64,000 nt of DNA from Enchytraeus crypticus (Eukaryota > Annelida > Clitellata > Enchytraeida > Enchytraeidae), in contig CAJHZI010000198.1 in assembly GCA_905160935.1 (NCBI GenBank), forward strand, positions 254,501 through 318,500, in the 5' to 3' direction. Of this stretch, positions 3,358-62,610 are shown one piece after another. The notes under the pieces are model-generated. The model was not told the DNA's origin and did not search any database. It saw nothing but the letters and a program-made list of their open reading frames with translations. Within the stretch, counting starts at the first letter, position 1; every line of letters begins with the position of its first letter. A program made the translations under genes and the position numbers.

Positions 3358-3726
3358 TTCTTCAGTGCACTGCCAAGTGGCAGGTTCAAGGTGCATATTT
3401 AAACTCAAATTCTGCTTTCTCGTTCCATAAGAGCACTTCTTAGATCAACAAGTTAATCCCTTTACAAAGTCTATGCCTTATCCATACCTTCTGTAGCCTA
3501 TATCTTGGGAAAAGTATGGCTTCTGAGGTGGTTTCTCGTTGCCTTTCTCAGTTAGATGGATTAATTACCATTTAATCCTGGGGAAAATATCTCATGGTGA
3601 GGTGGGTCCCCTCTTGCCATCCTCAGCTCCTACCTTTAGTCGCCTCTTACGTACACGCGGCAGATTGTTTTGCGGTTGCCCTATTCTGCAGTGGTCCAAC
3701 CACATCCGAGCGCAACACGGGGAACA
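3358..3726 (-). mobile_element. family B element, near complete
   Basis: Minus-strand copy of about 365 bp. On the + strand: CAGTGCACTGCCAAGTGGCA (3' end), CAACAAGTTAATCCCTTTAC, CTTATCCATACCTTCTGTAG, TTCTGAGGTGGTTTCTCGTT, TTTAGTCGCCTCTTACGTAC and a head ending CGCAACACGGGGAA. It pairs block for block with the plus-strand copy at 61533. No intact coding frame; SINE-like. Confidence 0.8.
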
Positions 3727-4102: not shown

Positions 4103-4174
4103 CTCCCCGACGGGGAATTGAACCCCGGTCTCCCGCGTGACAGGCGGGGATACTTACCACTATACTATCGAGGA
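4103..4174 (-). tRNA. tRNA-Asp (GTC)
   Basis: 72-nt minus-strand cloverleaf, nearly identical to metazoan tRNA-Asp. The acceptor stem is TCCTCGA paired with TCGGGGA plus discriminator G. The A box (TAGTATAGTGGTAAG), anticodon stem-loop CCGCCTGTCACGCGG with GTC, and B box GGTTCAATTCC are intact. No intron. The acceptor base pair 7-66 is A-T, a self-consistent pairing. A run of six T follows at 4096-4091 as pol III terminator. A decayed copy lies about 100 bp further downstream. Confidence 0.97.
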
Positions 4175-6981: not shown

Positions 6982-7395
6982 CTAACAAGTGGCAGGTCCA
7001 AGGTACTTATTCATATTCGGGCTCTACTTTCACATGTCATGCTTATACTGGCTGGAGCCAGTGGCGACGTCGGTAAGATACTCAACCGCGGATCAGTATG
7101 TGCATGGTTCAAATTCTGGGCTCGTCCGTCACTGACATCGCTTTCGAGTGAGGAAACAGACGTTAACCTTAGCTTTACCAGCTTTTTCATCGTAAAGAGG
7201 ACTCCATAGATTGCCAAGTTAATCCCTTCACAAAGACAATGCCTCATTCATACCTTGGAAAAGGCTTGAGAAAAGTTCTCGTTTCAGAAGCCGTTTCAAG
7301 TCGCCTTCTTCAATTTTCTTGTTTAGTCACCTCTTGCGATGAGTGCAGTTAACAGTTGGTCTCTTCTTCAGTACCCCGGACACAGCATGAGAACA
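6982..7395 (-). mobile_element. family B element split by a family A SINE
   Basis: The 3' end (TTCTAACAAGTGGCAGGTCC, AAGGTACTTATTCATATTCG) lies before 7048 and the rest (CTCCATAGATTGCCAAGTTA, CAGTTGGTCTCTTCTTCAG, CCCGGACACAGCATGAGAA) after 7190. The intervening family A copy is therefore a later insertion. Confidence 0.8.
7048..7190 (+). mobile_element. family A tRNA-derived SINE, inserted in a family B copy
   Basis: Representative family A copy. The head GGAGCCAGTGGCGACGTCGG supplies a pol III A box (TGGCGAYGTCGG) and GGTTCAAATTC a B box. A shared body follows: CACTGACATCGCTTTCGAGT, GAGGAAAC(A/T)GACGTTAAC, and an end at AGCTTTACCAG. Length about 130-140 bp, no coding capacity. It interrupts a minus-strand family B element whose two halves flank it, so it is the younger insertion. 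Confidence 0.85.
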
Positions 7396-9982: not shown

Positions 9983-10120
9983 AGCTAAAATACTAATGTT
10001 AACGCCAGTTTCCTCACTCGAAAGCGATGTCCGTAACTGGGGAGCCCAGGATTTGAACCCCGCACCTTCTCATCCGCGGTCGAATATCTTACTGATATCG
10101 CCACTGGCTCCAACCAGTGA
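9983..10120 (-). mobile_element. family A SINE
   Basis: Minus-strand copy. Reading the + strand it runs from the tail (AATGTTAACGCCAGTTTCCT) through the B box complement (GATTTGAACCCC) to the head complement (CGCCACTGGCTCCAACCAG). Lies about 470 bp from the rearranged cluster at 9300. Confidence 0.85.
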
Positions 10121-23799: not shown

Positions 23800-24090
23800 C
23801 ATTTTTTGTTAGCATATTTACACACATGACATATTGCATGTACGAGAGAGTTTCCTATATTGGCTCCTGTTTTTGTAGTTGTCGATATTTCCTCCTTTCT
23901 CTCCATGGTTATTAGTACTCATTGCTTTGTGTTGGCGCATCGATTGCAGCAGGCACGGATTTATGAATAATCTTCTAACACCCTCGGGATTACTTCATTC
24001 AAATCTGTCGACACTCGGTCTTCCAAAGTGGTCACCCACAAAAGTGCTAACGGGGCGGGTCATAGCTTAACCTCGTTCAACTGCTACGCA
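23800..24090 (-). mobile_element. family D 5S rRNA-derived SINE
   Basis: Minus-strand copy. In its own sense it reads GTTGAACGAGGTTAAGCTAT, CCGTTAGCACTTTTGTGGGT, GACCACTTTGGAAGACCGAG and TGTCGACAG. This follows the internal-control half of 5S rRNA (GAAGTTAAGC...GGTTAGTACTTGGATGGGTGACC...). Then a body with ATCCCGAGGGTGTTAGAAGA and CCATGGAGAGAAAGGAGGAA, and an end GTCATGTGTGTAAATATGC plus A-rich tail. The 63-aa + frame across it is not a gene. Confidence 0.82.
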
Positions 24091-24727
24091 GCTAAAAAGA
24101 ATGTGCAAATCAACCCCTTACAGTGTAAATATGTTGTTCATATTCAGGATTTCCTAGTGGAATAATGCTTATTTCACGCAAGTTAAATATGCAACTACAG
24201 TATAAAGAAGTCTTAACGTGTAGGTATAACATTAAGTTATAGCGTTTAATTTGATATGATGACCTCAAGTGACCTCAAGACACATATATGATTTTATTAA
24301 TTTCTTATTAGCCAATGTTGTCTCTTGCTGTGCTTGAAGACAGACTGTAAGAATTTATGCCGTGGAACTGAGACTGGGCAGAAAACTAAATTTGTTCATT
24401 TTTTAAGTTGCTTCAGAGTAAATTTTTGTCTTCTCTATATTCTTTCCGGTTTCAGTTTTTCATTAGAAAGCCCTGTTCTACGCGTGTATTTAGATTCTAT
24501 TTCTTTTTAATTTCATATGAAAACCAGGTGTATTCAATCAAGTTGGTGTTTAGTTCTATGTAAATAGCCTTTCATTCAATCCTTGAATATCGACTGTAAT
24601 TGGCATCTCGCAGCAATTAACCAAAAATAGCATAGTTTTCTATTAGTTTGTCATTCTTAGTTGCTTTGATTTCAAGCCTTACGGCTATGACATTGGCCAT
24701 TGTAAGCCCACAAACGTCTGATAAAAT

Positions 24728-29635: not shown

Positions 29636-29911
29636 TTCGTAATATCAATGCACTAACATACTGGAGAAAGTTAATAATATCGGTATCACAACCTATTCAA
29701 AAGGATGCTCATATAGTAAATAGAAATATCCTAACTAACGTTTTCGTTCGACTAAATTGTTTGCACGTTTTGTAATTGTTTCGTAATATCAATGCACTAA
29801 CATACTGGAGAAAGTTAATAATATCGGTATCACAACCTATTCAAAAGGATGCTCATATAGTAAATAGAAATATCCTAACTAACGTTTTCGTTCGACTAAA
29901 TTGTTTGCACG
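29636..29911. repeat. tandem duplication, two identical copies of about 131 bp
   Basis: The block from TCGTAATATCAATGCACT to CTAAATTGTTTGCACG occurs at 29637-29767 and again at 29781-29911 without a visible mismatch. The period is 144 bp with a 13-bp spacer (TTTTGTAATTGTT). A very recent duplication, or an assembly artefact. Confidence 0.93.
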
Positions 29912-40614: not shown

Positions 40615-41261
40615 GCTTTCTACATGTATGTAGTACTGTTTATCAATTACTATAATTGCACTTAGCTGCAATATTTGTGTGATATACGGTTTATATATCT
40701 ATGGTTTCATTTTTCTAAATAAAGGGCCAAGATGTAAATTGATATACGCTGTAGGAATCTTTAGAGAGCTCATCAGCATAAATTGAGAGATTCTGTCTCA
40801 TAACATAAACTTTGTCTATTTGTTAAATGACGCTGTAGTTTGGTAAATATGCTATCATAAGAGTTTTTAATATTAAGCACTTTGCATCTAGCTTAGTCTA
40901 CTTTTAAAAGCACTGAGTTGCAATTATATGGGCAGAAGATCTTTTAAGACTATTTTTATTACACAGAAATAATAACGCCAGAACATAAATCTGTCGTTAA
41001 CGACTGCATATCGTGTTAAACAGTCGACTAGCTACGCCTCTAAATAATACCATAATTTATATACCATGTGTGGAGAAGCCAGGATTTAAAATGTGATTTA
41101 AAATAAACGATAAGCGATTGCTAGGCCAGCTCTCAGCAGGAATTAGTCTGTCAGAGTAATAAGAGCAATGCCAAAGATTGCTTTTGCACATCTAAGTAGA
41201 GCAACTACTGATTGCAATTTTAGCAGTACTTTCATTGATCTCCACTAGAAACAACTGTGTC

Positions 41262-41967
41262 CTATGTCCTGTGTCCGGTGTCCTGTGTCCTGTGTCCAGT
41301 GTCCTGTGTCCTGTGTCCTGTGTCCTGTGTCCTGTGTCCTGTGTCCAGTGTCCAATGTCCAATGTCCAGTATCCAATGTCCAGAATCCTGTGTCCAGTGT
41401 CCTGTGTGTTGACTAATGTGTCCAGTGTTCCTTGACCAGTGTCCCGTAAACAGTGTTCAGTGTCCAGTATACAGTATCCTATGTCCTGTGCCCAGTGTCC
41501 AGTATCCTGTGTCCAGTGTCCTGTGTCCTGTGTCCTGTGTCCAGTGTGCTGTGTCCAGTGTCATGTGTCCAGTGTGCTTTGTCCTGTGTCATGTGTCCAG
41601 TGTCCAGTATCCTGTGTCCAGTGTCCTGTGTCCAGTGTCCTGTGTCCTGCGTCCAATGTCCAGTGTCCAGTGTCCTGTGTCCAGTGTCCAGTGACCATGC
41701 AGTGTCCTGTGTCCAGTGTCCTGTGTCCTGTGTCCAGTGTCCAGTGTCCTGTGTCCAGTGTCCAGTGTCCTGTGTCCAGTGTCCAGTGTCCAGTATCCTG
41801 TGTCCTGTGTCCAGTGTCCTGTGTCCAGTGTCCAGTGACCATGCAGTGTCCTGTGTCCAGTGTCCTGTGTCCAGTGTACAGTGACCATGCAGTGTCCTGT
41901 GTCCAGTGTCCAGTGTCCTGTGTCCAGTGTCCAGTGTCCTGTGTCCAGTGTCCTGTGTCCAGTGTCC
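41262..41967 (+). repeat. 7-bp minisatellite (TGTCCTG/TGTCCAG)n
   Basis: About 700 bp of tandem TGTCCWG heptamers, with variants such as TGTCCAA and TGTCATG. Three interruptions GACCATGCAG at about 41693, 41837 and 41883 mark a higher-order pattern in the distal half. The period is not a multiple of three and neither strand of the unit makes stops, so long open frames (92-177 codons) appear in all frames on both strands. They are artefacts of the repeat. Its GC content stands out from the AT-rich surroundings. Confidence 0.95.
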
Positions 41968-42195
41968 AGTAGACACGGTGATTCTCTTCTATCACTACAA
42001 GGACGACAGTAAGGATAGTAAATGTTTTACGAATGTTTGTGTTGCACTGCAATCATGATGACAGAACGTAAATCTGTCATTAACAACTCGTTATCACGTA
42101 TTACAGTCGCCGAGCTGAGCCTCAGTGACGAAGAGTGGCTAGACCATATATGTACAGTGTCGCATAGGATTAACACCCCAGATGTTGTCATGTTT

Positions 42196-44275: not shown

Positions 44276-44598
44276 AAATTTTTTTTGTTCGCATAGTTAC
44301 ACACATGACATACCGCATGTGCTACATAGTTTCCTTTCTTGGTTTCTGTTTTTGTAGTTTTCGTTATTTCCGCCATTCCTCTCCATGGTTATTAGTAATC
44401 GTTGCCTTTTGTTGGCGCATCAATTGCAGCCTGCGCGGATTTAAGAATAACCTTCCAACACCCTCGGGATTTTTTCTTTCAAAGCTGTCAACACTCGGTC
44501 TTCCAAGGTGGTCGCCGACAAAGTACTAACCGGCGCGATGGAGCTTAACTTCGTTCAACTGACGCACAGCTTAACCGAGTGCGCTAATCCCGCCCCAT
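44276..44598 (-). mobile_element. family D 5S rRNA-derived SINE, best copy
   Basis: Most complete copy. In its sense: GGCGGGATTAGCGCACTCGG TTAAGC (tRNA A-box-like), then the 5S-like part GAACGAAGTTAAGCTCCATC, CGGTTAGTACTTTGTCGGCG, ACCACCTTGGAAGACCGAGT and GTTGAC. A body follows with ATCCCGAGGGTGTTGGAAGG, GCTGCAATTGATGCGCCAAC and CCATGGAGAGGAATGGCGGA, then GTCATGTGTGTAACTATGCG and an A-rich tail. About 300 bp. Box A and box C of the 5S internal promoter are visible; the 5' half of 5S is replaced. Confidence 0.85.
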
Positions 44599-46382: not shown

Positions 46383-46718
46383 TTAGTGCACTGCCTACTG
46401 GCAGGCCCATGGTACATAACGCCTCCACTCTTCTCTGTCTTTCGCCTTCCTCTTCATTTCCACATATGAGTGGGTCTTTAAATCATCTAACATACCTAAT
46501 CTCGGCCTGCCCCTGCCTCTTTTCCTTCCATTCTACCTTTTATGACCTCTTTTAATAGACCTTCCCCCCTTAGAATGTGTCCTATCCATCTCTTCTTCCT
46601 ATTTCTTAATACATTTATCAACTGTCTATCTGTGCCAACTCTCTCCAGGACTTCCTCATTTGTAACTTTTTGAGTCCAGCTAATCCTCTCCATTCTTCTC
46701 CAAATCCACATTTCGGTG
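46383..46718 (-). mobile_element. family L LINE 3' end, best copy
   Basis: Minus strand encodes MWIWRRMERISWTQKVTNEE, VLERVGTDRQLINVLRNRKK and RWIGHILRGEGLLKEVIKGR, then after a one-base frameshift GRGRPRLGMLDDLKTHSYVE, MKRKAKDREEWRRYVPWACQ and a stop inside the 3' end GGCAGTGCACT. This is the reverse-transcriptase C-terminal tail typical of RTE/craniofacial-development-protein-2-like non-LTR retrotransposons. The 5' part is absent, so it is a dead, truncated insertion. Confidence 0.83.
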
Positions 46719-47817
46719 ATAAGGAATATAATGGATAATACAATGAAGAACAGATTGAGGAACATCGTGATAGTAGACAGTACAGTTACAGACCTGAAGC
46801 AATTCTACAGTCAGAAAAAAGGAAGATAAGTGAGAGTGAAATTGTCAGGGAAATTAATTTGCATCGGACAAGTACCTACAAGTCGTTGTTTGCAGTGATG
46901 CTCGATGAAGCGATAGACCAGATGTGACTTGCGTTTTATGAATTGCGATCTACAAGTACATGTATTCTATGTAAAAGTTTTTGAGGCATTGATACAACAG
47001 GGCTTTAAAGTAAACTTCGCAGGCAAATAAAAAGTTTCGATCTTTAAGTATTTCAATTTCTGATATTTTAATTTATGAGTCCCCGACTGAGCTTTAATTT
47101 TTAGTTTTTTAAATTTATTTGGTACTAATGCATTTAATTTTTCACTTCTTTCATTTTCTTTCATTCATTCTGTGTCATGCTTATCGTTTATTCGAAAATA
47201 GAATCGTTTCGAGGTTTTCTTGGCCTTCCTCTATACTATTATGTTTAAAACAGAGTTTAAGGACAACTCCTGTAAAACAACTTCTTGTAAAAATATTTTT
47301 CGTTACTGTTTATGATTAGCTTACTTGAATCAATGTGTGTGACTAAGATGATGGTGTTAGTTGATAGTATACATATGATGCTATACGATAGTGTTATTTA
47401 AAATGCCAAGTGTTATATGATAGTGTTATTAGTATCGCTATTAGAAATTATTCCATTTAGTATTTCAACAATATACTTGAACATGTAGATTTTTATTCAA
47501 AAATTAACCCGAAAAATTCGCAAAATGAATTCAGTGATAATAAATAAGCATCACGTGGAAATGATGTTGATTTAAAAAATATATGTTGTAAAACCTAAGA
47601 AACACCATTTTACCACATACTCGGATTGGGAGAATCATTCATAGATTACGATTTAAATAAAGCAATTTACATATATTTACTATGTTTTAATTATATTATA
47701 TAATTGTATTTTTTTAATTAAATCAAATTATCGTTGATTCCAATACATTTACAGTTGATAAACTAATTATGAAATATCTATAAATTAAATAATGGTTAAC
47801 TGGAAGGGAAGTATCGT

Positions 47818-51835: not shown

Positions 51836-52661
51836 GTACCCCGCTTCCACCAGTCTAGAATCATCTAATTCACAAGAGGTTCAGGTCAATGTTTATCATC
51901 TCGCTAGATGAGACATTCTTCCATAATGACATCATAATCAATCATAAAACGGAGCGTTCGACGAGGTAACCCTTCCCTCTTCTCTCTCTATCCCATCTCG
52001 AACCCGCCTGTACCAATCCACTATCCCATCCCCTCCTTGGTTCGACCGTTTATCGCTCCAATGGCCTCCTTTGACATTTCATCGAAATATCAAGAAGCCC
52101 GGAGCGATGAAGACTTGAAGGGTGATAAGACATTAAGCCTCATCGTATACTCTCTGTTCTACACCTTGGAGTAATTATAGGCGTTTGCAAAAGGACATTT
52201 CGAAAACAGAATTATGTTCAAATAGCTCAATGTGACATTTGAACTTTAACTCAGGTCACATCATGACAATTTCAATGGCTGATGCTGATTTGAATTGAAC
52301 TCTCTAGGGTGAATTCCTGAACGAGATGATCAGAGATTAATATCGCGGACAGTCATATAATAAGTAAATGAATAATTGACAGTAAGCTGATTAACGGATA
52401 GACCTATGTAATTTATGACAGATATCGTCAAAATAATGATCATTTCATTCCATTTTAAATGTTTAAACTTTTTTTCTTATTGAAAGTCCAATAGTAACTG
52501 CCAATTTTCAGTAACAGAACAACAAACATATGGTGAGTGGTAACTGAAACACATATGCCTTTGCTTCCTTATAAACAGTATCATAGGCAGGTAAAAACCT
52601 AACTTTTCTATTCTTTTCGATTCTAACTTTACTATGCCTCTTTACAATTTATAATCCTTAT

Positions 52662-52795
52662 CTTGGCTGAAGCCAGTGACGATGTCGGTAAGTTATTCGA
52701 CTGCAGATCAGTATGTGCGAGATTCGAATCCTAGGCACACCCGTCACTGACATCGCTTTCGAGTGAGGAAACTGACGTTAAGATTTAGCTTTCCA
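52662..52795 (+). mobile_element. family A SINE
   Basis: Plus-strand copy with head TGGCTGAAGCCAGTGACGAT, B box GAGATTCGAATCCTAGG (very close to the pol III consensus) and body CACTGACATCGCTTTCGAGT to GACGTTAAGATTTAGCTTTC. Confidence 0.87.
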
Positions 52796-52844
52796 TGATT
52801 TCCAAACCTTACGTAAACTTTCTTATTCTTAGTTCCCATTCTTT

Positions 52845-57280: not shown

Positions 57281-57565
57281 TTTACTAGCTTAACACTCGA
57301 ACAGTAACAACATAAAATTTCGTTAATTTGACCTCAAGAAAAATAATTGAGCTTGAGATCATTCACTAGAATTTATTGGAGGACAACGAACGCGAAATTA
57401 TTGAGCTATAAAGTTTTAGCATAACTAACAGGTGGCTGCACAATACTGTAATTTAAAAGACTCAAAAAAGCTTCCATTACTTACCAAGATAATATTCCAT
57501 TTAAAAGTATATCTAATACCATATATTTACATGTATCTGAGAGAATTCAATTTTTGGCCCATATG

Positions 57566-57819
57566 GTTAGGCACATGACAACCGCATGTGTTTCAAAGTT
57601 TCCTTTATTGGTTTCTGTTGTTTTCTTCGTTATTTCCTCCTGTCTCTCCATGCATGGTTACTGGTAGTCGTTGCCTTTTGTTTGCGCATCCATTGCAGAA
57701 GGCCATAATTTACGAATAACCTTCCTACACGATGTGGATTTGTTTTCATTAAAAGGCTGTCAACACTCGGTCTACCAGAGTGGTCACCAACAAAGTACTA
57801 ATCGAAAACGAAGTAGCTT

Positions 57820-57821
<2 letters not shown>
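57566..57821 (-). mobile_element. family D SINE, 5'-truncated at a TA tract
   Basis: Minus-strand copy with GTTAAGCTACTTCG, GATTAGTACTTTGTTGGTGA, CCACTCTGGTAGACCGAGTG and TTGACAGCC. Its head is lost where a TA microsatellite begins. Lies about 0.8 kb upstream of the first visible stomatin-like exon. Confidence 0.78.
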
Positions 57822-57863
<42 letters not shown>

Positions 57864-57896
57864 GAATACACACACAGACACATACAGTATATATAT

Positions 57897-57954
<58 letters not shown>

Positions 57955-57972
57955 TATATATATATAATGTAT
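57821..57972. repeat. TA microsatellite with CACACAGACACA insert
   Basis: (TA)n replaces the head of the family D copy at 57566. It contains ACACACACAGACACATAC and ends in the palindrome ATACATTATATATATAATGTAT. Confidence 0.9.
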
Positions 57973-58623
57973 ATATCTGATTTTGCAATATAATTTTCAA
58001 GGATCACGTTTTCATGGATGTTAAGAAAGGCAATCATCACTTCATGGATTCATATCGTTTACTGCTCTTGGTTTCTGACATTAATTTGGTTTGGTCTCAA
58101 CTTTTTACGCTGGAACTAAACAAAAGAAAACACTTCTATTATACACTTTCCTCTTTTACTCAATTTGGCGTACACAGAATGATCTTGTTGCATTTAAATA
58201 TATTCTAAAGGTCCGCAATTATTTTCAGTGATTTAATTCAACGAAAGACTTAATTCAGTTGTACGCTTTTGGTGCATGAAAATTTATATTTAATCTCATA
58301 CCAGACACATGGTTTTGGAAGCTGTTTAATTAATGATTAATAAGGTAGCGGAAAATCACTTTAGAGTTCAGAATGTTAAAAGAATGTCTATATTGAATTA
58401 CCTCAGAAAATAATTGTTTTGGTACGATCAACATTTCGTCTCTATGCAGAAATTATTGCGAAATATTAAAATGAATTTATGCAATCCATTATCTGCCATT
58501 CTCTGCAAACTAGAATAAATTACATGCACAAATGAATTTATTTTAATTGCTTTTACATCGTGTAAGGTTTTAAGACTTTATTGATTTGTTGTGCTTAATT
58601 TATTTAGTTTATATATTCTGTAG

Positions 58624-58742: not shown

Positions 58743-59629
58743 GTATACATTATTGTCTCTATTACACTAGTCTTCTCTTTGCTATTAAACGTAGAGAAAT
58801 ACAGTATAACAAAGTCATTATGCAACATAACAGCACACTGGGTCGGGAAGCAGAGATGCCTGTTTAAGACCCATTTCCTCCTTCCTCTCCATGGCTATTA
58901 GTAATCGTTGCATTTTGATGGCCAATCAATTGCAGCCGGCACCGATTTAAAAATAACCTTCCAACACCCTAGGATATTTTCGTTCAAACCTGCCAACACT
59001 GGATCTTCCAAGGTAATCATCAAACCATGTATTAATTGAGGTTAATGGAGCTTACTTCGATAATTGGCGCGCATCTAAACCAGCTATATACATGAACGTT
59101 ACATGAACTATTATCTATAACTGAATACGTGCAAAATTTTAGAAAATTAGAAGCCATCCCGGGTTTTCTTGCTCAAAAGCGGTGACAAAAATATGAAAAA
59201 ATATGATTAACTTAGTTAATTTAGGTATTTAAATAACAATTATCAAATGCAGTTAGCTAGCTCGATTACGTTTCTTTGAATCGCATACGGTAAAGCGAAA
59301 CCCATTGCCAATTAGCAGCGCGCGAGTTGATAAGAATTGAAAATGTTTAATATGAGTGATGTTTTCCGTTTTGTGTGCGGGATGCAAAATAATAGACCTA
59401 TGTTAAATTGTATGTGTCATAAACAGCGACTGAGCAAAAACTGAGGAAGTCAACGGAAAACCACATCAGGCAGGATTCACATTGTTACCATTGGCTACAT
59501 TGATGTGTGGAGAATGCATAGCCTTTATAAATAATTAACCTGCTGATCAATTGAGTGCACTCTATGGACGGTGAAATGCGGCGTATGAGAAGGATTATGT
59601 ACCTTGGACCCGCCACTTGTCAGAACATC

Positions 59630-59662
<33 letters not shown>

Positions 59663-61390
59663 GTGGGGAAGTACAGCGTTTAAGAATGGTAGCAAGAATT
59701 AAGTTAGCTCCTGAGAAATGTTAAAATACGGATTTTAACTTGGACAAAACTGATTCATTTCTAATTTAGATACATTTAGTTTAAACGATATATATTCTGA
59801 ATTTTCTGTTTTGTTCTATAACGCTTAGAATATTTTCAAAAATGGTTTTGAAACTTATATGATTTGCATATTTAGTATATTGGCAAGTTATATTCAATAA
59901 TTGAATAAGTATAATTGTTAAATACTGATTGATTGATCGAGTAATTTAAAACTGCCTGTAAGACTAGAATGTTAATTATTATTGACTGTTACTTATTGCT
60001 TGGCAGTTCAGATAATTTAATGATTGATTGATTTTAGGTTGTGCAGGAGTACGAGAGAGCAGTAATATTTCGCTTGGGTCGTCTGCTTTCAGGAAGCGCC
60101 AGGGGTCCTGGTAAGTTCACAAGATTAATAGTTGTCCTGAAGGTACATAGTATATGACAAACTTCATCTTAAACAGAGAATAAGCAATTCCAATCCTAAC
60201 CTGAACTGCTCTGATTGTATCCCTCTGGGGATGCAAATAGAATCTACTCATAGCTTTACTTCTTGCTTTTGCAAGTTAGATTTACACTTATAACGAGAAT
60301 GATGAAGTCATTTCTCGTAATTGTTAGTGATTATCTAAAACTATTCTTGAAATGCATACTTTTAGTAGAATCGGTTAAGCTTACTGTATGTGAACTAATT
60401 GCTGATGATATTTATGACTGCACTAAAGATTACCATTTCATTAAGAATTTAATAATTGTTTCACTGCGTTAATTGTTTATGAAATTAATATTCATTTTAG
60501 TATTATTTATGAATACTGAACTGAATAATGACTTATGAATCCATGCTTGACACGTTTATATATGTTTCAGGCTTGTTCTTCATCATTCCATGCACGGATT
60601 CGTACACCAAGGTTGATCTTAGAACCGTTTCCTTCGACATTCCGCCGCAAGAGGTCTATAGAAAAATCTACGATAAATTTAAATTTCTTAAAATTATTCA
60701 TATAATAATATTAAATTATTTTATATGTCTGTAGAAATATAAAATAGAAAATATAAAATAGAATTATCCGCGAATAAAAGAAGGAAAGAGAGTACGAGAA
60801 GAAACAGACACTTGTTAATTTTATCGGAAAATCGTAGGACAATTCTAGTATTGGTCTGCTAGAACTGATTGAGATAGGCCAAAATTTGTAATATCAACGA
60901 AACCTTTCAAATTTCGAATTTTTCTACTTAAATATGATATTGTAAATAAATTACAATAATATTAAGAACGACACAATTAAACCACCATAATATTAAGAAT
61001 GCTACAATAGCGCTTTAACATTCATTTTGTCATTAGAAGCTGATGCAAGAAATGTCAAATTAAACGCGATATTCATGAGTGAAACATTGATTACGTATGA
61101 ATTGGCTGATAAAGCTATCTTTTACTTACCATTATATCACGGCCTAAATATTGATTTATCATTCTAATTGATTGATTATTGATTAGATCCTGTCAAAGGA
61201 CTCAGTGACGGTGGCAGTGGATGCTGTGGTCTACTATAGAGTATCAAACGCTACCATCTCCATCACAAACGTCGAGGACGCTAATCGATCCACTAGGCTC
61301 CTCGCTCAGACAACTCTCAGGAATGTCCTAGGCACAAAAAATCTCAGTGAAATTCTCTCTGACAGAGAAAACATCAGCCATTTCATGCAG
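58624..61390 (+). CDS. stomatin/MEC-2-like SPFH membrane protein, partial gene (four exons joined)
   Basis: Four exons splice in frame into about 159 residues that closely follow the stomatin family. Order: a hydrophobic hairpin rich in Leu and Cys with the central Pro (LTLPFSLCLCLK), the post-membrane motif EYERAVIFRLGRLL, the PCTDSYTKVDLRTVSFDIPPQE segment (split across an exon), then KDSVTVAVDAVVYYRV, STRLLAQTTLRNVLGTKNL and EILSDRE. Family members are monotopic, cholesterol-binding scaffold proteins of the inner plasma-membrane leaflet. They oligomerise and tune ion channels; MEC-2 acts with touch-sensing channels. The N-terminal exon(s) were not found upstream, and the second half of the SPFH domain plus coiled coil (normally about 280-300 residues in total) lies beyond the window. 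Splice phases agree at every junction. By memory the sequence looks closer to MEC-2/vertebrate stomatin than to the fly-specific paralogues. Which paralogue it is remains open. Confidence 0.93.
58866..59084 (-). mobile_element. family D SINE, diverged, in a stomatin-like intron
   Basis: Minus-strand copy inside the intron after the hairpin exon. CCTTCCTCTCCATGGCTATT, AGTAATCGTTGCATTTTGAT, AATAACCTTCCAACACCCTA and CCTGCCAACACTGGATCTTC (+ strand) match the other copies. The 5S part is worn but AGTAAGCTCC and the distal head GATGCGCGCC remain. Confidence 0.72.
59365..59636 (+). mobile_element. family B element in a stomatin-like intron
   Basis: Plus-strand copy in the intron between 58742 and 60038. 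TTCCGTTTTGTGTGCGGGAT (head), GAGGAAGTCAACGGAAAACC, CTGATCAATTGAGTGCACTC, TATGTACCTTGGACCCGCCA, CTTGTCAGAACATCAGAG, then a GA microsatellite. Confidence 0.75.
59634..59661 (+). repeat. GA microsatellite at family B 3' end
   Basis: (GA)n then GGTGGGG, at the end of the intronic B copy. Confidence 0.88.
60038..60110 (+). CDS. stomatin-like gene, exon encoding VVQEYERAVIFRLGRLL...
   Basis: 73-bp exon between acceptor gattttag and donor CTG|gtaagt. It enters in phase 0 from the hairpin exon and leaves in phase 1. It encodes the highly conserved segment just after the membrane hairpin (EYERAVIFRLGRLLSGSARG), the start of the SPFH domain that lies on the membrane. This is one of the most invariant stretches in stomatins. 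Confidence 0.93.
60571..60653 (+). CDS. stomatin-like gene, exon encoding LFFIIPCTDSYTKVDLRTV...
   Basis: 83-bp exon from acceptor tatgtttcag to donor GAG|gtctat. The split Gly codon (G|GC) restores the frame and the exon ends in phase 0 at DIPPQE. It encodes the early SPFH domain, PCTDSYTKVDLRTVSFDIPP. The reading frame stays open into the intron for about 80 bp by chance, but the homology stops exactly at PPQE and resumes with ILSKDS in the next exon. Confidence 0.93.
61187..61390 (+). CDS. stomatin-like gene, SPFH core exon
   Basis: 204-bp exon (68 codons) beginning ATC after acceptor attgattag. It encodes ILSKDSVTVAVDAVVYYRV, then the SNATISITNVEDANRSTRLL region and TLRNVLGTKNLSEILSDRE, the SPFH core. 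Homology fades after HFMQ, where relatives continue with (S/T)xLDEAT. The best-fitting end is a GC donor, CAG|gcatgt. A GT four bases later (GCAT|gtttat, phase 1) would also fit the family's next residues. No downstream exon with the DEATDxWG motif was found in the remaining 2.6 kb. Confidence 0.9.
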
Positions 61391-61532
61391 GCATGTTTAT
61401 TTCTACTACTGTTACTCCTTCCGTTTTACTTAAACAACTATAACATTAATAACAACAATTAGAACGGTATGATGTTTTGTTATGTTATTATTCCTATGTT
61501 ATTATCGATATGCTATTATCGATGTTATTATC

Positions 61533-61850
61533 TGCCGCGTGTACGTAAGAGGCGACTAAAGGCAGGAGCTGAGGATGGCAAGAGGGGACCCACCTCACTA
61601 TGGAATATTTTCCCCCAGGATTAAATGGTAATTAATCCACCAAACTGCGGAAGGCAACGGGAAACGAACCACCTCAGAAGCCATATTTTCCCAAGCTATA
61701 GGTTACATAAGGTATGGATAAGGCACAGACTTTGTAAAGGGATTAACTTGTTGATCTAAGGAGTGCTCTTATGGAGCGAGAAAACAGACTTTGAGTATGA
61801 ATATGTACCTTGAACCTGCCACTTGGCAGTGCACTGAAGAAGAAGACTGA
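61533..61850 (+). mobile_element. family B element, well preserved
   Basis: Best plus-strand copy. CTGCCGCGTGTACGTAAGAG, GCAGGAGCTGAGGATGGCAA, GAGGGGACCCACCTCACTAT, ATTAAATGGTAATTAATCCA, GGTATGGATAAGGCACAGAC, GTACCTTGAACCTGCCACTT, GGCAGTGCACTGAAGAAG. Lies downstream of the last visible stomatin exon. Confidence 0.82.

Positions 61851-62378: not shown

Positions 62379-62431
<53 letters not shown>
62378..62431. repeat. TA microsatellite
   Basis: (TA)n directly upstream of a family A SINE. Confidence 0.92.
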
Positions 62432-62432
<1 letters not shown>

Positions 62433-62438
62433 GCCAAT

Positions 62439-62570
62439 GGCTGGAGCCAGTCGCGATGTCGGTAAGATATTCGAGCGCGGATCAGTATGTGCGGGCTTCA
62501 AATCCTGGGCTTACCCGTCACTGACATCGCTTTAGAGTGAGGAAACTGACGTTAACATTAGCTTTACCAG
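62439..62570 (+). mobile_element. family A SINE between two TA tracts
   Basis: Plus-strand copy in the region after the last visible stomatin exon. Head GGCTGGAGCCAGTCGCGATG, B box-like GGCTTCAAATCCTGGGC, full body to AGCTTTACCAG. Bordered on both sides by long TA microsatellites. The tail AACTGGTAAAG reappears at about 62614, beyond the first part of the 3' tract. Confidence 0.87.

Positions 62571-62610
<40 letters not shown>

What the first reader, a model, noticed from the sequence alone, without database searches (positions are those of the whole stretch)
44276..44598. 5S rRNA-derived SINE with a possible tRNA-type box upstream (family D)
Four minus-strand copies (23800, 44276, 57566, 58866) share a segment that follows the 3' half of 5S rRNA: GAAGTTAAGC, CGGTTAGTACTT, GGYGACC, CCTTGGAAGACCGAGTGTTG. 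The best copy also has ATTAGCGCACTCGGTTAAGC ahead of it, which looks like a tRNA A box. 5S-headed SINEs (SINE3 class) and 5S/tRNA chimeras are known in vertebrates. Here the tRNA-like part would precede the 5S part, the reverse of what I recall for AmnSINE1.
Basis: partly seen in the sequence, partly recalled or inferred. Interest (0 to 1): 0.75.

Follow-up and report, generated by a model that had tools for sequence, protein, structure and literature searches.

The report
Short jumping element with 5S-rRNA promoter
Four old copies of a roughly 310-base non-coding mobile element in an animal genome carry a promoter copied from the 5S ribosomal RNA gene; this is a known kind of element, and the suggested extra piece of tRNA at its front is possible but not proven.

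Summary
Four same-strand copies of one ~310-bp repeat are present (blastn from the best copy: E 4.8e-83, 2.8e-54, 5.8e-44). About 73 nt follow 5S rRNA positions ~48-121: a 5S query over the whole window returned three hits at E<=10, all in family copies, two significant (3.7e-5, 3.2e-4; third 0.42). The majority sequence scores 89 against 5S, shuffles 36.9±4.3. Best reading: a 5S-headed SINE (SINE3 type) with a degraded pol III type 1 promoter, an unrelated body and an A-rich 3' end; a known kind.

The tRNA claim stays open. The ~43 nt upstream lie inside the element but do not resemble 5S 1-47. Likeness to tRNA 5' halves depends on copy and boundary: majority p 0.045-0.065 with a reverse-complement control slightly higher; with a few more bases, p 0.002 (best copy) to 0.33. 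No B box, no tRNA-profile hit, no Rfam tRNA hit. No convincing target-site duplication and no partner LINE were found. The host genome could not be searched, so no genome-wide consensus exists.

The parts
44279..44596 (-). best copy (D44) of the 5S-headed SINE, about 318 nt, near full length
   Evidence: majority sequence aligns 44589-44281 at 95.8% of 310 (D44 served as tie-breaker for that majority)
44553..44596 (-). upstream segment of D44 (44 nt) with the A-box-like TAGCGCACTCGG at 44586-44575; origin unresolved
   Evidence: shared with D24 (32 of 48 aligned columns, a few flanking bases included) and, less surely, D58 (19 of 36); blastn extent; tRNA tests
44481..44552 (-). 5S rRNA-derived segment of D44 (box A, IE, box C)
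   Evidence: 55 of 72 aligned positions identical to recalled human 5S 47-121; nhmmer E 3.7e-5
44279..44480 (-). body and A-rich 3' end of D44
   Evidence: alignment of copies; no further homologue in the window at E < 2 with the majority as blastn query
23802..24117 (-). second near-full-length copy (D24); 5S-like part 24074-24001
   Evidence: blastn E 4.8e-83; 5S query E 3.2e-4; 86.1% of 316 to the majority
57561..57824 (-). copy D57; lacks the upstream segment and the start of the 5S part; an (AT)n array abuts its 5' end
   Evidence: blastn E 2.8e-54; 80.3% of 264 to the majority; tandem array 57823-57976
58872..59097 (-). copy D58; ends within the body (3' part missing), head strongly diverged; 5' end uncertain
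   Evidence: blastn E 5.8e-44 from 59081; nhmmer from 59094; 83.5% of 212 to the majority

Best explanation
A family of 5S rRNA-headed SINEs (SINE3 type) in an animal genome, represented here by four old, degraded copies. Shown: a repeat of ~310 nt with common ends, a segment homologous to 5S rRNA ~48-121 placed after ~43 nt of other sequence, a non-5S body and an A-rich 3' end. Inferred: the 5S part served as an internal pol III type 1 promoter (bound by TFIIIA, then TFIIIC/TFIIIB); the transcript read through to the 3' end and was copied into new sites by the reverse transcriptase of a LINE that recognised the tail. The first ~43 nt replace 5S 1-47 and are either fully diverged 5S sequence, a captured tRNA 5' piece, or something else.
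For: Copies far apart in the window, with flanks that give only short local matches (150-nt flanks, three pairs at each end, scores 13-17, no shuffle control). 5S homology significant over the whole window and confined to family copies; majority 5S part 89 vs mean 36.9, sd 4.3, max 55 of 5000 shuffles. Boxes collinear with 5S: D44 box A 10/15, IE 5/6, box C 12/18 (box positions recalled). No TTTT in D44 or in the majority sequence, as a pol III transcript that must reach its 3' end would need. A-rich 3' end in the three copies that reach it. The same anatomy, promoter boxes better kept than the part upstream, is reported for lepidopteran SINE3 (PMC10886601, passages), and a 5S head on a body and tail shared with another SINE for HaSE3 (PMC3272025, passages).
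Against: No convincing target-site duplication: the search for pairs of 8 nt or more with at most one mismatch gave one near-flush 7-of-8 pair in D44, two 7-of-8 pairs in D24 and AT-rich pairs in D57; D58 was not tested. No partner LINE or tail match found in the window. D24, D57 and D58 do not by themselves exceed the highest of 2000 shuffles against 5S. Rfam's 5S model stays far below its gathering score on D44 and reports nothing on D24 or in the whole-window run. T-runs of four or more: two in D24, two in D57, one in D58. Box identities in D57 and D58 are poor (IE 2/6 in both). D58 differs from D44 and D24 more in the head than in the body, so subfamilies may exist that four copies cannot resolve.
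Confidence: 0.85

Rival explanations
1. Within the SINE3 reading, sub-hypothesis 1, tRNA/5S chimera: the first ~43 nt come from the 5' half of a tRNA, joined near 5S position 47 by template switching or RNA ligation, so the head is tRNA 5' half + 5S 3' part.
For: D44 upstream vs 23 recalled tRNA 5' halves: best 37 (Ile, Asn), p 0.023 for the maximum of 23; Met alone p 0.0007; by-eye majority p 0.013. Earlier single tests for D44: Ile (picked by eye) p 0.0017, Rfam tRNA consensus p 0.012. With a few further bases: D44 42, p 0.002 (reversed and reverse-complement controls 30 and 29); D24 38, p 0.0145 (26 and 27); majority 39, p 0.0135 (32 and 35). Of 272 43-nt slices of the majority, the best (37-39) start at positions 3-12; the best starting after position 45 is 34. 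No similarity to 5S 1-47. Lead: in mammalian LINE-1 chimeras 5S pieces often end at position 46 and tRNA pieces are halves (PMC13174262, passages).
Against: Rule-based majority without the extra bases: p 0.065 (mono) and 0.045 (di), and reverse-complement tRNAs score 35 against 34. D24 p 0.29 and D58 p 0.23 in the first maximum-of-23 test; D58 p 0.33 in the second (its query held only two further bases). D44 vs the window's tRNA-Asp p 0.95. Different best tRNAs by copy. No tRNA-profile hit, no Rfam tRNA hit, best B-box match 7 of 11 in each of three copies. The further bases belong to the 5S-like part, and several boundaries were tried without correction. tRNA references are recalled human-like ones. 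In the LINE-1 chimeras the 5S piece kept is the 5' one and mostly antisense, here it is the 3' one in sense.
Confidence: 0.35
2. Within the SINE3 reading, sub-hypothesis 2: plain SINE3 with a full-length 5S head whose 5' 47 nt have diverged beyond recognition.
For: Upstream length (43-44 nt) is close to the 47 nt of 5S before the same motif; the gapped alignment of D44 runs collinearly to 5S position ~6; greater divergence upstream of the promoter is the published pattern in lepidopteran SINE3 (PMC10886601).
Against: No residual similarity above shuffles: local p 0.59 (D44), 0.79 (D24), 0.47 (D58); majority 0.91 (mono) and 0.83 (di).
Confidence: 0.35
3. LTR of a 5S-promoter TRIM (like Ajax of nemerteans) rather than a SINE; D57 and D58, same strand and about 1 kb apart, would be its two LTRs.
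For: 5S promoter pieces do occur in TRIM LTRs (PMC10886601, passages); D57 and D58 lie close together in the same orientation.
Against: D57 and D58 are the least alike of the six pairs (123 of 193 columns); they cover different parts of the model (38-298 and 2-225); D44 and D24 have no second copy nearby; the ends are GGGG and A-rich.
Confidence: 0.04
4. The 5S likeness is chance within an unrelated repeat.
For: D57 and D58 alone lie within the range of shuffles; Rfam score is low or absent.
Against: Whole-window 5S query hits only family copies; z about 12 for the majority 5S part.
Confidence: 0.02

Closest known systems
Lepidopteran 5S-derived SINEs (HaSE3, PxSE4/5, CsSE2, LaSE2; SINE3)
   Same: 5S-derived head with box A, IE and box C (PMC8010984, PMC3272025, passages); PxSE4/5, LaSE2 and CsSE2 are 294-389 nt and PxSE4/5 share about 63% identity with 5S; upstream part more diverged than the boxes (PMC10886601)
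   Different: no sequence compared directly, as their consensus sequences are not on hand; listed tails of PxSE4, PxSE5 and CsSE2 are short tandem repeats such as (TGA)n, here the end is A-rich; host here unidentified
AmnSINE1 / Deu-SINEs
   Same: a 5S-derived part inside a SINE
   Different: recalled order is 5S first, tRNA-related after; here any tRNA part would come first; presence of the Deu domain could not be tested
MEG SINEs of fruit bats, including MEG-TR, a tRNA/5S hybrid (MEG-TR recalled from Gogolevsky et al. 2009; paper not held; the name occurs in 0 of the 13 papers listed)
   Same: MEG SINEs are called 5S rRNA-derived (PMC7547651, passages); MEG-TR would be the precedent for a tRNA/5S hybrid
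   Different: not compared; mammalian; structure of MEG-TR recalled only
Ajax and Cassandra (TRIM LTRs with a 5S promoter; PMC10886601, passages)
   Same: 5S promoter boxes on a short non-autonomous retroelement
   Different: those are LTR elements with paired repeats; no pairing seen here

Membership tests
SINE3 (5S rRNA-derived SINE) | head homologous to 5S rRNA including box A, IE, box C | tested here: met
   strongest in D44, weak in D57 and D58
SINE3 (5S rRNA-derived SINE) | short (about 100-600 nt), dispersed multicopy element with an unrelated body | tested here: met
   four copies, about 310 nt, flanks without long matches; copy number beyond the window unknown
SINE3 (5S rRNA-derived SINE) | target-site duplications | tested here: inconclusive
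   only 7-of-8 pairs in D44 and D24 and AT-rich pairs in D57; D58 not tested; copies are old
SINE3 (5S rRNA-derived SINE) | 3' tail shared with a partner LINE or oligo(A) | tested here: inconclusive
   A-rich end seen; no tail match elsewhere in the window; no repeat library available
SINE3 (5S rRNA-derived SINE) | pol III transcription | not testable with these tools
   no expression data; absence of TTTT in D44 and the majority is compatible
tRNA-headed part (SINE2-like) | A box and B box at tRNA spacing | tested here: not met
   A-box-like 11 of 12 in D44 only; best B-box match 7 of 11 in D44, D24 and D58; D57 not scanned
tRNA-headed part (SINE2-like) | sequence homology to a tRNA | tested here: inconclusive
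   p 0.002 to 0.33 by copy and boundary in the maximum-of-23 tests; no profile hit, test of low power
AmnSINE1 / Deu-SINE | conserved Deu central domain and 5S-tRNA order | not testable with these tools
   no Dfam or Repbase; Deu sequence not recalled reliably
TRIM with 5S promoter (Ajax) | two near-identical LTR copies per element | tested here: not met
   D57/D58 63.7% identical, the lowest of six pairs; D44 and D24 have no second copy nearby

The most novel reading that the evidence does not exclude
The head is a fusion of a tRNA 5' half (about 40 nt, A box kept, B box absent) with the 3' part of 5S rRNA starting at about position 47, the reverse of the order recalled for AmnSINE1, formed by joining two processed RNA pieces; the A box of the tRNA piece may add to the type 1 promoter.
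Probability: 0.3. Interest if true: 0.5.

Novelty: new member of a known kind. Interest (0 to 1): 0.3.

Why it matters
5S-headed SINEs are much rarer than tRNA-headed ones (so stated in PMC10886601, passages), and how a 5S piece becomes a working SINE head is little known. If the tRNA-first fusion were proven it would show that halves of two pol III RNAs can be joined into one promoter. As it stands it adds one more old SINE3-type family in an unidentified animal.

Tried and rejected
Chance 5S likeness: rejected. TRIM LTR pair: disfavoured. 5S 5' half in the upstream segment: no residual similarity, though divergence beyond recognition stays possible. Relatives elsewhere: three exact patterns from the element gave 0 contigs each in viral contigs. 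Of two patterns against genome contigs one gave 0; the other, a 20-mer, gave five prokaryote contigs in which the match around the 20-mer is 20-32 nt long; judged chance. The antisense reading frame of D44 (44278-44526) had no candidate in the protein search. A 35-codon open frame in the body starting ACCATGG has no Pfam match at E<=1 in 2 of 2 versions tried and stays open in 7% of shuffles. Two weak extra hits of the family model at 13971-13928 and 14589-14542 (E 0.67, 5.8) were printed and not counted. The host was not identified: of 10 frames (picked from 346 listed as less repetitive) scanned against Pfam, one, a stomatin/MEC-2-like exon, matched. Of its 1991 protein hits 120 were shown; the only organisms named there are Elysia chlorotica (87%) and Plakobranchus ocellatus (90%), molluscs by recall, while unnamed entries match at 100% over 75% of the query. 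The literature searches served to find relatives; I claim no absence from print.

Full report
What is there. Four minus-strand copies of one repeat lie at about 44596-44279 (D44), 24117-23802 (D24), 57824-57561 (D57) and 59097-58872 (D58). With the D44 region as blastn query the other three are found at E 4.8e-83, 2.8e-54 and 5.8e-44, and the next match has E 0.037. A profile built from the four finds them again (circular) and two weak others, E 0.67 and 5.8. D44 and D24 are near full length (about 310-318 nt). D57 begins inside the 5S part, next to an (AT)n array. D58 stops in the body. Flanks of 150 nt, three pairs at each end, give only short local matches (scores 13-17, no shuffle control). 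The copies are old: against the majority sequence they are 95.8% (D44, which also served as tie-breaker), 86.1%, 80.3% and 83.5% identical over 310, 316, 264 and 212 columns for D44, D24, D57 and D58.

The 5S part is real. A recalled human 5S sequence run as an nhmmer query over the whole window gives three hits at E<=10, each in a copy of this family (D44 3.7e-5, D24 3.2e-4, D57 0.42); D58 is not found. The majority sequence of the region scores 89 against 5S; 5000 shuffles average 36.9 (sd 4.3, max 55). Identity of the copies to 5S 47-121 is 55 of 72, 48 of 74, 47 of 73 and 42 of 74 positions for D44, D24, D57 and D58. The promoter boxes (positions recalled) are in order but damaged: box A 10, 8, 9, 8 of 15; IE 5, 4, 2, 2 of 6; box C 12, 11, 10, 10 of 18. 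Against the reading: Rfam reports no 5S in the whole-window run at E<=10, gives D44 alone only 15.6 bits (gathering 38) and nothing on D24; D24, D57 and D58 on their own do not pass the highest of 2000 shuffles each (z 4.2, 2.6, 1.7; D44 z 9.8).

The upstream segment. About 43 nt precede the 5S part. They belong to the element: blastn from D44 covers 37 of the 44 nt in D24 and the last ~24 nt in D58. They are its least conserved part (32 of 48, 19 of 36 and 20 of 36 columns identical for D44-D24, D44-D58 and D24-D58, a few flanking bases included). They do not resemble the 5' part of 5S: local p 0.59, 0.79, 0.47 for D44, D24, D58, 0.91 and 0.83 for the majority. For tRNA the result depends on how the test is set. 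Against 23 recalled tRNA 5' halves, taking the best of 23 and comparing with shuffles: D44 p 0.023, D24 0.29, D58 0.23, by-eye majority 0.013; rule-based majority 0.065 (mono) and 0.045 (di), with reverse-complement tRNAs at 35 and reversed ones at 32 against 34 for the true strand. With four further bases (two in D58) and 48-nt halves: D44 0.002, D24 0.0145, D58 0.33, majority 0.0135; controls for D44 30 and 29 against 42, for D24 26 and 27 against 38, for D58 22 and 24 against 29, for the majority 32 and 35 against 39. The further bases belong to the 5S part, so this last set favours the tRNA reading. Of 272 slices of 43 nt along the majority, those starting at 3-12 score 37-39, and the best starting after 45 scores 34. 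Single-reference tests before these gave D44 p 0.0017 (Ile, picked by eye), 0.012 (Rfam tRNA consensus) and 0.95 (the window's tRNA-Asp); D24 0.22, 0.88, 0.998; D58 0.042, 0.23, 0.023 (local). A profile of the 23 halves finds the window's tRNA-Asp (E 0.0025) and three weak places elsewhere (0.12 to 3.4), but none of the element copies; it is a weak test. Rfam's tRNA model reports nothing on D44 or D24. The A-box match of D44 is 11 of 12, reached or passed at 40 places in the window; the best B-box match is 7 of 11 in each of three copies. I leave the origin of this segment open.

How it most likely works. By anatomy it is a SINE whose internal pol III promoter is of type 1, taken from 5S rRNA. 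Transcription by pol III, recognition of the 3' end by a LINE reverse transcriptase and insertion by target-primed reverse transcription are inferred. Compatible facts: no run of four T in D44 or the majority (D24 has two such runs, D57 two, D58 one) and an A-rich 3' end. Facts that do not help: no convincing target-site duplication (a near-flush 7-of-8 pair in D44, two 7-of-8 pairs in D24, AT-rich pairs in D57, D58 not tested) and no partner LINE found. An LTR origin is unlikely, because the two neighbouring copies D57 and D58 are the least alike of the six pairs (123 of 193).

Comparison with what is known. [quoted passage not shown] In lepidopteran SINE3 the promoter region is better kept than the part upstream (PMC10886601, passages), which is the pattern here. 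HaSE3 is called a chimera because a 5S head sits on the body and tail of a tRNA-derived SINE; that is another kind of chimera from the one proposed here. Papers on fruit-bat hybrids, LINE-derived SINE bodies and mollusc SINEs were not held. I recall a tRNA/5S hybrid named MEG-TR in fruit bats; the name occurs in none of the 13 papers listed. Mammalian LINE-1 chimeras often contain 5S ending at position 46 and tRNA halves (PMC13174262, passages), a lead for how such a head could arise; but there the 5' piece of 5S is kept and is mostly antisense, here the 3' piece is kept in sense.

Limits. Only four copies, in one window. Whether the family is already in Repbase or Dfam is unknown.

Verdict. 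An ordinary kind of element, correctly spotted: a probable SINE3-type family. The tRNA-first fusion is the interesting part and is not settled.

Noticed in passing
window 23802-24117 and 44279-44596 (body), minus strand: The body holds a 35-codon open frame beginning ACCATGG (MERKEEI...CHVCNYANKK in the majority); by eye it is open in D24 up to a TGA and broken by a one-base shift in D44. It may be chance (open in 7% of shuffles) or a piece of a LINE reading frame. No Pfam match.
   Followed up: partly
window 61187-61459, plus: Exon-like frame of a stomatin/MEC-2-type protein (Pfam Band_7, E 1e-10); shows that the window is from an animal.
   Followed up: partly
window 46499-46804, minus: Frame with 83 protein hits, best 90% over 69% of it, none with an organism name, no Pfam match; by recall it resembles the C-terminal part of an RTE-like LINE, a possible partner for SINEs.
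   Followed up: partly
window 7039-7189, 52654-52804, 62428-62578, with inverted copies near 9993, 24723 and 25086: Another dispersed repeat family with a B-box-like stretch (GGTTCAAATTC in the first copy), perhaps a tRNA-headed SINE.
   Followed up: no
window 3358-3665 and 61530-61841: Inverted pair of a repeat; arms of 156 and 86 nt are 93% and 95% complementary, so apparently younger than the family studied.
   Followed up: no
window 41257-41970: About 103 copies of a 7-base unit GTGTCCA; the three frames over 150 codons in the window lie there and look like a product of the repeat.
   Followed up: no
window 29636-29911: Perfect tandem duplication of a 144-nt unit, 1.9 copies.
   Followed up: no
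window 4103-4174, minus: tRNA-Asp (GTC), Rfam 60.3 bits, apparently intact.
   Followed up: no
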